IMG/VR virus record: IMGVR_UViG_3300028597_001076
Location: 1-23,136 of that record
Strand: one strand, 5' to 3'
Length of the DNA: 23,136 bases
Source: a virus
In this document: positions 21,918-23,136 of the stretch, piece after piece
Layout of the letters: each line of letters begins with the position of its first letter
How positions within the stretch are numbered: the first letter of the stretch is position 1
Translations under genes and position numbers: made by a program
Notes under the pieces: generated by a model
The model's database searches: none
The model's input: only the letters and a program-made list of their open reading frames with translations
What the model was told of the DNA's origin: nothing

Positions 21918-22292
21918 TTACTCGCTTCGGGAGTAGTCGTCTGGTTGGTGATACTTGTCATAGCCTTGAGTGAATGCCTCGCCCAAGCCTGAAATTCTCT
22001 CTCTCGCGGGGAGGGTTAGCTTCGCGCTGATGTTGTACCAAGGGTAGACACCCTTGATATCCGGATGCATGGTCGCAGCGACCTCAACATCTGAGGTTGA
22101 CACGTACCGGCCTGCCCATTTCTCGATCATGTGCTTCAACGCAAACGTCCGCTGTTGAGGTCCCTTGATTTTCGTCTGAGCATCCAGCCACTCGTAAGCG
22201 AACCGGATGCAATCGTTATGCTCATGGAGGGGCTCGGATTGCTTATAAGTCGTTGCTTTCTTGCCTGCCTCAATCTGCTCATCTGAAATCAT
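21918..22292 (-). CDS. unknown minus-strand accessory gene (124 aa)
   Basis: This is the only credible minus-strand gene, converging on the o-spanin with a 7-nt gap. The ATG at 22292 (MISDEQIEAGKKATTYKQSE) is preferred because AAAGGGG lies 8 nt ahead; an upstream frame to 22397 has no ribosome binding site and unlikely content. The 124-residue product is soluble and has conserved-looking aromatic motifs (CIRFAYEWLDAQTK, HMIEKWAGRYVS, GVYPWYNISAKLTLP) and a polar tail. I do not recognise a family. GC is near 50%, below the structural genes, and the opposite orientation at the lysis end fits a moron, a gene expressed from the prophage. Its role is open. Confidence 0.72.
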   Translation of the reverse strand: MISDEQIEAGKKATTYKQSEPLHEHNDCIRFAYEWLDAQTKIKGPQQRTFALKHMIEKWAGRYVSTSDVEVAATMHPDIKGVYPWYNISAKLTLPARERISGLGEAFTQGYDKYHQPDDYSRSE

Positions 22293-22495
22293 GCGTAAAA
22301 CCCCTTTGGCGGTTGTGATGAGATCTGCAGCCGGCTGACAGGTAAGGCCAACCGGAGGACACAACAAATCTATCATGGCCCATGGCCATGGAGTCATGTA
22401 TCCCGCAGTACAGGATCAACCTCCCGCATATTTCCCATCCCTCCTGCTCGAGCTGAAAGGAAAGCCCGCCAAGCGGTTCTGGCCTGGCCATCCGT
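22293..22495. other. divergent intergenic region
   Basis: This stretch separates the minus-strand gene from the LexA-controlled pair. It contains CCATGGCCATGG (22380-22391), a perfect 12-bp palindrome within a run of three overlapping CATGG words. I see no reliable gene or clear minus-strand promoter in it; the frames crossing it look like shadows. Confidence 0.4.
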
Positions 22496-22525
22496 TTGGA
22501 TGTTCAAATTCTGTATCCATATACA
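22496..22525 (+). promoter_or_regulatory. candidate σ70 promoter overlapped by a LexA box
   Basis: TTGGAT (22496-22501), an 18-nt spacer and TATACA (22520-22525) form a plausible promoter for the gene at 22539. The -10 element lies within the LexA box, so bound repressor would block RNA polymerase. Confidence 0.5.
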
Positions 22526-22526
22526 G
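22511..22526. promoter_or_regulatory. LexA (SOS) box
   Basis: CTGTATCCATATACAG is a CTG-N10-CAG box that matches the gammaproteobacterial LexA consensus in all the critical positions, with six symmetrical bases on each side. It lies 12 nt before the ATG at 22539. Confidence 0.88.
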
Positions 22527-22538
22527 TATTGGTGCCGT

Positions 22539-22832
22539 ATGTACTTCCTCCTTGTTCGCCGCCGTGAGCGCGGTGTCGCCATCCCCAACGAAAAGCTCGC
22601 CAAGGTCAAGCCGCTGCGCGCAGACGTGCACATCGAGTACGGCCACAGCAAAGTGCTCGGGCGCCCGTGCATTGAGGCCTGGGTGTTCAACCCGACGCCG
22701 AGCGGCGACATCATCCCGCGCCTTCACGATGCCTGCGTCAACGGCATGGCCCAGATGGGCATGAACATCACCGGCTTCGAAGACATCGACGGCGTGCTGT
22801 ACTCGCAGTCGTGGTGGTGCCGTGTTGAGTAG
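22539..22832 (+). CDS. LexA-controlled protein of unknown function (97 aa)
   Basis: The ATG at 22539 lies just behind the LexA box; the longer frame from 22500 would translate through the box and is rejected. The 97-residue product has a basic N terminus ([10 protein letters not shown]), then [40 protein letters not shown] and a hydrophobic-aromatic end ([13 protein letters not shown]). I do not know its family. SOS control means it should be made after DNA damage, alongside prophage induction or host repair. It overlaps the next gene by 11 nt, so the pair is an operon. No membrane segment or catalytic motif is obvious. Confidence 0.75.
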
Positions 22833-23136
22833 GCTGGCCGGCATTCCGCGGCCTTGGCTCGACGAGTTATACGACGGCCCCGCCCTGGTCACCGACCCAG
22901 ACGGACGCGCCGCAGTGCTCAACGAAATGGCCTATGCCGCTCGCCGGCGGCAAGAGGTAGATGGCGGCACGCAGTCCGACATGCTGGAGCTTGCCGAGGC
23001 GGCCAGGACCTGGGCGCTACTCGAGCACGAAGAGGCCTGGGCCATCGGCCTGCTCAGGTTTGAATCTGGAGAGGAGTGGGAGAGGGACGAGCCAGGACGG
23101 ATCGTGGTCGGCAGATCGCCGCGGGAGGGGGTGTAA
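22822..23136 (+). CDS. second gene of the LexA-controlled pair, unknown function (104 aa)
   Basis: It starts at GTG inside the 3' end of the preceding gene and ends at TAA on the last base of the window. The 104-residue protein begins [20 protein letters not shown], followed by an acidic helical section ([20 protein letters not shown], about 54-73) and a charged, glycine-containing tail. No family is recognised. The weak ribosome binding site suggests coupling to the upstream gene, so it should share the LexA control. In my memory of Pseudomonas genomes such small SOS genes may precede SOS-associated functions, but what follows here cannot be seen. Confidence 0.7.

What the first reader, a model, noticed from the sequence alone, without database searches (positions are those of the whole stretch)
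22496..23136. Two-gene SOS cassette carried at the phage edge
A LexA box matching consensus overlaps the -10 of a promoter for two overlapping genes of unknown function, and the operon likely continues beyond the window. It would be switched on by the same signal that induces the prophage. The unit may be a phage-borne DNA damage response or a competition or defence module.
Basis: partly seen in the sequence, partly recalled or inferred. Interest (0 to 1): 0.58.

Follow-up and report, generated by a model that had tools for sequence, protein, structure and literature searches.

The report
LexA-controlled two-gene cassette of Pseudomonas prophages
A small pair of genes of unknown function, apparently held off by the host's DNA-damage repressor, is carried as a swappable cassette at the ends of many unrelated Pseudomonas prophages and on some plasmids, often beside DNA-damage genes, so it is probably a travelling DNA-damage-response module.

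Summary
The LexA box at 22511-22526 matches CTGTATNNNNATACAG at all 12 fixed positions (0 matches in 100 shuffles). A box with at most 2 mismatches lies upstream of 284 of 316 distinct relatives of gene 1, against 45 of 3,160 control stretches. Gene 1 (22539-22832; phrog_5560) and gene 2 (22822-23136; phrog_6137) form a real pair: gene 2 follows gene 1 in 104 of 116 close relatives; in another clade the order is reversed, in 72 of 72. The cassette moves alone: a 48-kb prophage in Pseudomonas peradeniyensis shares with the window only 22474-23130. There gene 2 ends about 118 bp before a 60-bp att-like repeat, so the operon probably does not continue. Relatives often carry a divergent SRAP gene sharing the box, or a UmuD-like peptidase; the window keeps a broken SRAP remnant. 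Gene 1 is predicted all-beta with no clear structural relative. Best reading: a mobile, LexA-repressed DNA-damage-response module. Its biochemical function is inferred; competition or defence has no support. Nothing was tested in cells.

The parts
22511..22526 (.). LexA operator CTGTATCCATATACAG, exact palindromic consensus
   Evidence: same position in relatives; the closest host genome has only 6 exact sites in 5.9 Mb, one of them this cassette's
22531..22534 (+). GGTG, probable short ribosome-binding site directly between box and start codon
   Evidence: G at -8 in 93 of 94 distinct upstream sequences, GGTG largely conserved; role inferred
22539..22832 (+). gene 1, 97 aa, phrog_5560, predicted all-beta protein with conserved QSWWC end
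   Evidence: ATG at this place in 93 of 94 distinct sequences; dN/dS median 0.10 over 2,173 pairs
22822..23136 (+). gene 2, 104 aa (GTG start), phrog_6137, predicted helical core with a disordered tail
22390..22431 (-). remnant of the first codons of a divergent SRAP gene, without a start codon and cut off after about 14 codons
   Evidence: intact copies lie here in relatives
21918..22397 (-). unrelated low-GC cargo ORF sitting where relatives carry the body of SRAP (true start uncertain)
   Evidence: not part of the cassette

Best explanation
A mobile SOS cassette made of a LexA-repressed promoter, gene 1 and gene 2. In the lysogen, host LexA holds the exact operator and keeps both genes off. 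After DNA damage, RecA-stimulated LexA cleavage frees the promoter and the two overlapping genes are made together. The proteins most likely act as accessory DNA-damage-response factors beside the SRAP (abasic-site), UmuD-type and UmuC machinery, helping the element or its host pass damaged DNA. Shown here by sequence: operator, its conservation, gene pairing, purifying selection, mobility as a unit, location next to an att-like repeat in a relative, association with SRAP and S24. Inferred: LexA binding, induction, joint action of the two proteins, and the damage-tolerance role.
For: Exact box, 0 in 100 shuffles. Box with at most 2 mismatches within 420 nt upstream of gene 1 in 284 of 316 distinct loci, against 45 of 3,160 control stretches. 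The same operator type precedes the host's own lexA (1 and 2 mismatches) and recA (2 mismatches). Gene 2 accompanies gene 1 in either order. SRAP lies upstream in 55 of 316 loci; 51 have its 5' end between -200 and -50, and 50 of these have exactly one box (at most 3 mismatches) in between. A UmuD-like S24 peptidase is directly adjacent in 26 of 316 (identity). In one genome gene 1 directly follows umuD-umuC (L182). On P. cerasi and P. syringae conjugative plasmids the order is SRAP, box, gene 1, S24, gene 2-like ORF, which shows that the module is not tied to phage growth.
Against: No enzyme, DNA-binding or repair domain is recognisable in either protein, and no fold match is convincing. In clade C (72 loci) no upstream SRAP or adjacent S24 was found, and gene 1 occurs without gene 2 in clade D (0 of 28), so neither the partners nor gene 2 are obligatory. 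32 of 316 loci lack a box with at most 2 mismatches; 5 of clade C are cut by the contig end, and some, such as L102, L136 and L200, are copies without the usual 5' end. Neighbourhood shows association, not function. No expression data were found.
Confidence: 0.5

Rival explanations
1. SOS modulator: gene 1 and/or gene 2 bind LexA, RecA or an S24 repressor and tune the SOS response or prophage induction, as DinI, PsiB, phage GIL01 gp7 or DdrR do.
For: Small proteins under LexA control, next to UmuD-like S24 proteins in 26 of 316 loci; two protein-binding-sized domains without enzyme motifs; precedents for small LexA or UmuDAb partners (GIL01 gp7, search listing; DdrR, search listing).
Against: No sequence match to any curated regulator family; most loci (290 of 316) have no adjacent S24 gene.
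Confidence: 0.25
2. Late phage helper: the genes assist lysis, excision or packaging and use LexA only for timing.
For: In the window the cassette follows the endolysin and an Rz-like gene and lies at the phage end; the integrase is close in the circular phage genome Medea1.
Against: Present on conjugative plasmids beside parAB, in a filamentous phage and after umuDC, and shared between prophages with no other DNA similarity.
Confidence: 0.12
3. Defence or competition module (toxin, abortive infection or superinfection exclusion) fired by DNA damage.
For: Prophage ends carry variable cargo, including a defence-like ATPase upstream of this cassette in L016 and Gabija in phage PfAC02b.
Against: Neither protein matches PADLOC; the recurrent partners are DNA-damage genes, not defence genes.
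Confidence: 0.08
4. LexA-controlled but selfish passenger: the pair persists because the cassette recombines well at phage ends, with little function for phage or host.
For: It moves as a sharp unit; partners vary; a few copies are broken.
Against: dN/dS median about 0.10 for gene 1 and dN well below dS for gene 2 point to protein-level function.
Confidence: 0.05

Closest known systems
umuDC/rulAB and SRAP SOS gene neighbourhoods (SRAP described in PMC3765255, passages read)
   Same: LexA-type box, S24 UmuD-like and SRAP neighbours in relatives, carriage by phages and plasmids
   Different: The two window genes are neither a polymerase, a UmuD nor a SRAP; the window cassette has no S24 or UmuC and only a SRAP remnant
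PP3901 of Pseudomonas putida (LexA-regulated prophage gene; passages read in PMC4595014)
   Same: Prophage gene under host LexA control in the same bacterial group, induced by DNA damage
   Different: Published PP3901 primer sequences are absent from loci L002-L106, so gene 1 there is not PP3901; its product was not compared
PA0922 of P. aeruginosa (LexA regulon, divergent from dinB; one passage read in PMC8944484)
   Same: Unknown gene of the Pseudomonas LexA regulon
   Different: Homology to gene 1 was not tested; no named sequence was at hand
Small SOS modulators: GIL01 gp7, DdrR (search listings), DinI, PsiB (recalled)
   Same: Small proteins tied to LexA, RecA or UmuD control on mobile elements or chromosomes
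   Different: No sequence similarity found; action unknown here
Bacteriophage P1 Ref (search listing)
   Same: Phage gene acting with the host SOS machinery
   Different: Ref is an HNH nuclease needing RecA; no such domain here

Membership tests
Host LexA (SOS) regulon | LexA operator matching the host consensus at the promoter | tested here: met
   Exact site at 22511-22526, conserved in relatives; host lexA and recA upstream regions carry the same motif
Host LexA (SOS) regulon | LexA binding and induction by DNA damage | not testable with these tools
   No experiment; no expression data found
umuDC/rulAB translesion operon | S24 UmuD and Y-family polymerase in the operon | tested here: not met
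   Neither lies in the window cassette; adjacent S24 in 26 of 316 relatives, gene 1 directly after umuC in one locus
SRAP (PF02586) | Intact SRAP domain with N-terminal Cys | tested here: not met
   Window has only about 14 codons without a start; intact in relatives
Known anti-phage defence systems (PADLOC) | Profile match | tested here: not met
   0 families for both proteins
DinI/PsiB-type SOS modulators | Sequence match to curated families | tested here: not met
   0 Pfam families for the window's gene 1 and gene 2 at E 0.1 and no such family among the matches listed for relatives (25 of 26 families shown for A3)
DinI/PsiB-type SOS modulators | Binding to RecA, LexA or UmuD | not testable with these tools
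   Needs an experiment
PH/EVH1/Ran-binding superfold (gene 1) | Same fold | tested here: inconclusive
   Best Z 5.0, rmsd 3.2, 69 residues; Foldseek best E 0.54
phrog_5560 / phrog_6137 | Profile match over most of the protein | tested here: met
   E 4.8e-37 (residues 8-97) and 1.9e-29 (residues 7-77)

The most novel reading that the evidence does not exclude
Gene 1 and gene 2 are two undescribed protein families that act together as a mobile SOS effector: a damage-tolerance or SOS-tuning complex that phages and plasmids of Pseudomonas exchange as a unit, in either gene order, and that can be extended with SRAP and a polymerase-free UmuD-like protein.
Probability: 0.4. Interest if true: 0.72.

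Novelty: new variant of a known kind. Interest (0 to 1): 0.52.

Why it matters
LexA-controlled extra genes on mobile elements are a known kind, but this pair is unusually common (gene 1 matches in 101 of 398 Pseudomonas species genomes), has no known domain, and keeps its operator and partnership across unrelated elements. [quoted passage not shown] The SRAP and UmuD partners make the question directly testable.

Tried and rejected
Continuation of the operon: rejected as likely, because a close relative reaches an att-like repeat about 118 bp after gene 2. In that genome the integrase downstream of gene 2 belongs to a second, tandem prophage, since the 60-bp repeat occurs three times and the first prophage has its own integrase at its left end.

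Alternative start of gene 1 at 22500 (110 aa): rejected, because it would place the box inside the gene and the ATG at 22539 is the conserved one.

Identity with PP3901: published primers not found in L002-L106. Families: Pfam, NCBIfam and PADLOC gave nothing for either protein apart from a sub-threshold DUF1153 match of gene 2. Solved-structure sequence search gave nothing convincing. Fold searches: gene 1 best E 0.54 in PDB and 0.38 in BFVD; gene 2 best E 2.8 in PDB; a PH-like arrangement at Z 5.0 is too weak to name a fold. A search of the relative's prophage for a LexA-like S24 repressor with a UmuD-type profile found none, which is not evidence of absence. Literature searches for a description of this pair; none of the listings named it. 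Only open-licence papers are held, and the P. putida LexA regulon paper (PMC2168638) is not among them, so an earlier mention is possible.

Counts: 352 loci entered the neighbourhood analysis and 316 remained after removing identical DNA from -60 to +240. L001 and L112 (duplicates) and L354-L371 were not in it. Loci were chosen by similarity to gene 1, so pairing rates describe gene 1 relatives, not all phages. Clade labels A-D follow the search that brought each locus in, not a tree; 57 mixed loci are labelled X. The gene finder used for neighbours was home-made, and profiles for SRAP, S24 and gene 2 were built from these loci.

Full report
What is there. The window is a 23,136-base virus record holding the late half of a Pseudomonas-type prophage with a contractile tail: holin, terminase, sheath, baseplate hub, endolysin. 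At its right end lies an exact LexA operator, CTGTATCCATATACAG, at 22511-22526 (0 exact matches in 100 shuffles). Gene 1 (22539-22832) starts 12 bases after the box with a conserved GGTG in between, and gene 2 (22822-23136) overlaps it by 11 bases. The proteins match phrog_5560 and phrog_6137, both of unknown function. No consensus sigma-70 promoter was found by scan, so the claim that the box covers the -10 element is plausible but weakly based.

More than chance. Relatives came from four scans of viral contigs, one scan of genome contigs, all hits titled Pseudomonas apart from one titled Pantoea, phage and plasmid records and genome searches. Of 316 distinct loci, 284 carry a box with at most 2 of 12 mismatches within 420 nt upstream of gene 1 (89 exact), against 45 of 3,160 control stretches of the same length from the same loci. 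In close relatives the box starts 28 or 29 bases before the ATG in nearly all. In the genome of the closest named relative only 6 exact boxes exist in 5.9 Mb, one of them this cassette's; the upstream regions of that host's lexA and recA hold weaker versions of the same motif. The genes evolve under purifying selection (median dN/dS of gene 1 0.10 over 2,173 pairs; gene 2 dN 0.07-0.18 against dS 0.43-1.39 in nine comparisons).

A two-gene unit in either order. Gene 2 follows gene 1 in 104 of 116 distinct clade A loci. In clade C, carried among others by contigs with P2-like late genes (my reading of the proteins printed), a gene 2 homologue precedes gene 1 in 72 of 72, with the box before gene 2 in 63 (at most 2 mismatches); 5 more are cut by the contig end. 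In clade B gene 2 follows directly (20 of 43) or after a UmuD-like gene (10 of 43). Clade D (28) has gene 1 without a recognised gene 2. The third gene of the P. cerasi plasmid operon also matches phrog_6137 weakly (E 1.1e-4).

It moves as a cassette, and it is at the edge. The prophage of P. peradeniyensis that holds the relative L082 shares with the window only 22474-23130, at 90% identity. There a 60-bp repeat lies about 118 bp after gene 2, 48.35 kb upstream, and again 39 kb downstream; with an integrase just inside the left copy, this reads as attL and attR of one prophage and a second prophage in tandem. The repeat looks like the 3' end of a tRNA-Ser gene (recalled pattern); ARAGORN finds a tRNA-Ser at the matching place in L085 and L095 but none in L082. 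So gene 2 is the last phage gene in this relative, and the operon most likely ends there. For the window's own phage this is inferred. Other close relatives do share some upstream lysis DNA with the window (for example L004, L005, L018), so the cassette does not always travel alone: 53 of 105 loci had no other upstream match within the fetched 4 kb.

Partners. SRAP (PF02586) lies upstream in 55 of 316 loci; in 51 its 5' end falls between -200 and -50, and 50 of these have exactly one box in the gap, so one operator probably serves both directions. A UmuD-like S24 peptidase is adjacent in 26 of 316; umuC is directly upstream of gene 1 in L182 and within about 5 kb in L106, L149 and L289, with fragments in L093/L115 (Y-family hits). 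The window once had the SRAP arrangement: about 14 codons of SRAP remain on the minus strand at 22390-22431 without a start codon, and a low-GC ORF (21918-22397) occupies the place of the rest. A published analysis already noted SRAP beside umuDC and in temperate phages (PMC3765255, passages read).

Distribution. Gene 1 matches occur in 101 of 398 genomes of the genus, some of them fragments, but in only 3 of 369 genomes drawn from the class, one of them the starting genome. Besides tailed prophages it occurs on conjugative Pseudomonas plasmids and in a filamentous phage.

What the proteins look like. Gene 1 is predicted as an all-beta domain (mean pLDDT 95.6, 119 sequences) with the invariant or nearly invariant end QSWWCR; gene 2 as a helical core with a low-confidence tail (mean 82.5). 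No structural match is convincing, and no family beyond the PHROGs was found.

How it most likely works. Host LexA represses; damage activates RecA; LexA is cleaved; a strong operator would make this a tightly held, later unit (general knowledge of SOS boxes, recalled). The recurrent partners suggest a role in tolerating or processing damaged DNA; a role in tuning LexA, RecA or UmuD-type proteins is the main rival. A phage-only function is made unlikely by the plasmids, and a defence role has no support. All steps after the operator sequence are inferred.

Compared with the known. LexA-controlled genes of unknown function exist in a P. putida prophage (PP3901; PMC4595014, passages) and in P. 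aeruginosa (PA0922; PMC8944484, one passage). The cassette therefore belongs to a known kind, SOS-controlled genes on mobile elements, but its two protein families, its order swap and its pairing with SRAP and polymerase-free S24 genes were not named in the listings of the searches made here.

Noticed in passing
window 21918-22397 (-): Low-GC cargo ORF (about 53% GC against 60-70% around) that replaced most of a SRAP gene; distant relatives (37-41% identity) in Plesiomonas and Brevundimonas phages.
   Followed up: partly
L082 region, P. peradeniyensis contig (L356-L361): Two prophages in tandem at one 60-bp tRNA-like repeat, 48 kb and 39 kb long.
   Followed up: partly
L110 and L111, plasmids of P. 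cerasi and P. syringae: A 116-aa UmuD-like S24 protein with no umuC next to it, inside the cassette, beside parAB.
   Followed up: partly
L109, filamentous phage PfAC02b: A gene 1 relative with a box of 2 mismatches, near Gabija defence genes.
   Followed up: no
L016 453-2411 (-): A 652-aa ATPase resembling defence ATPases (PADLOC ATPase-Toprim, AriA) in the cargo slot between lysis genes and the cassette.
   Followed up: no
L182: Order SRAP (reverse), umuD, umuC, gene 1: gene 1 as apparent third gene of a umuDC operon.
   Followed up: partly
L082 3717-3926 and many clade A loci: A small ORF (phrog_9523) sits just upstream of the cassette in 75 of 116 distinct clade A loci; function unknown.
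   Followed up: no
L369 and L370: The closest host genome has two LexA-type proteins; only the first has boxes of this consensus nearby.
   Followed up: no
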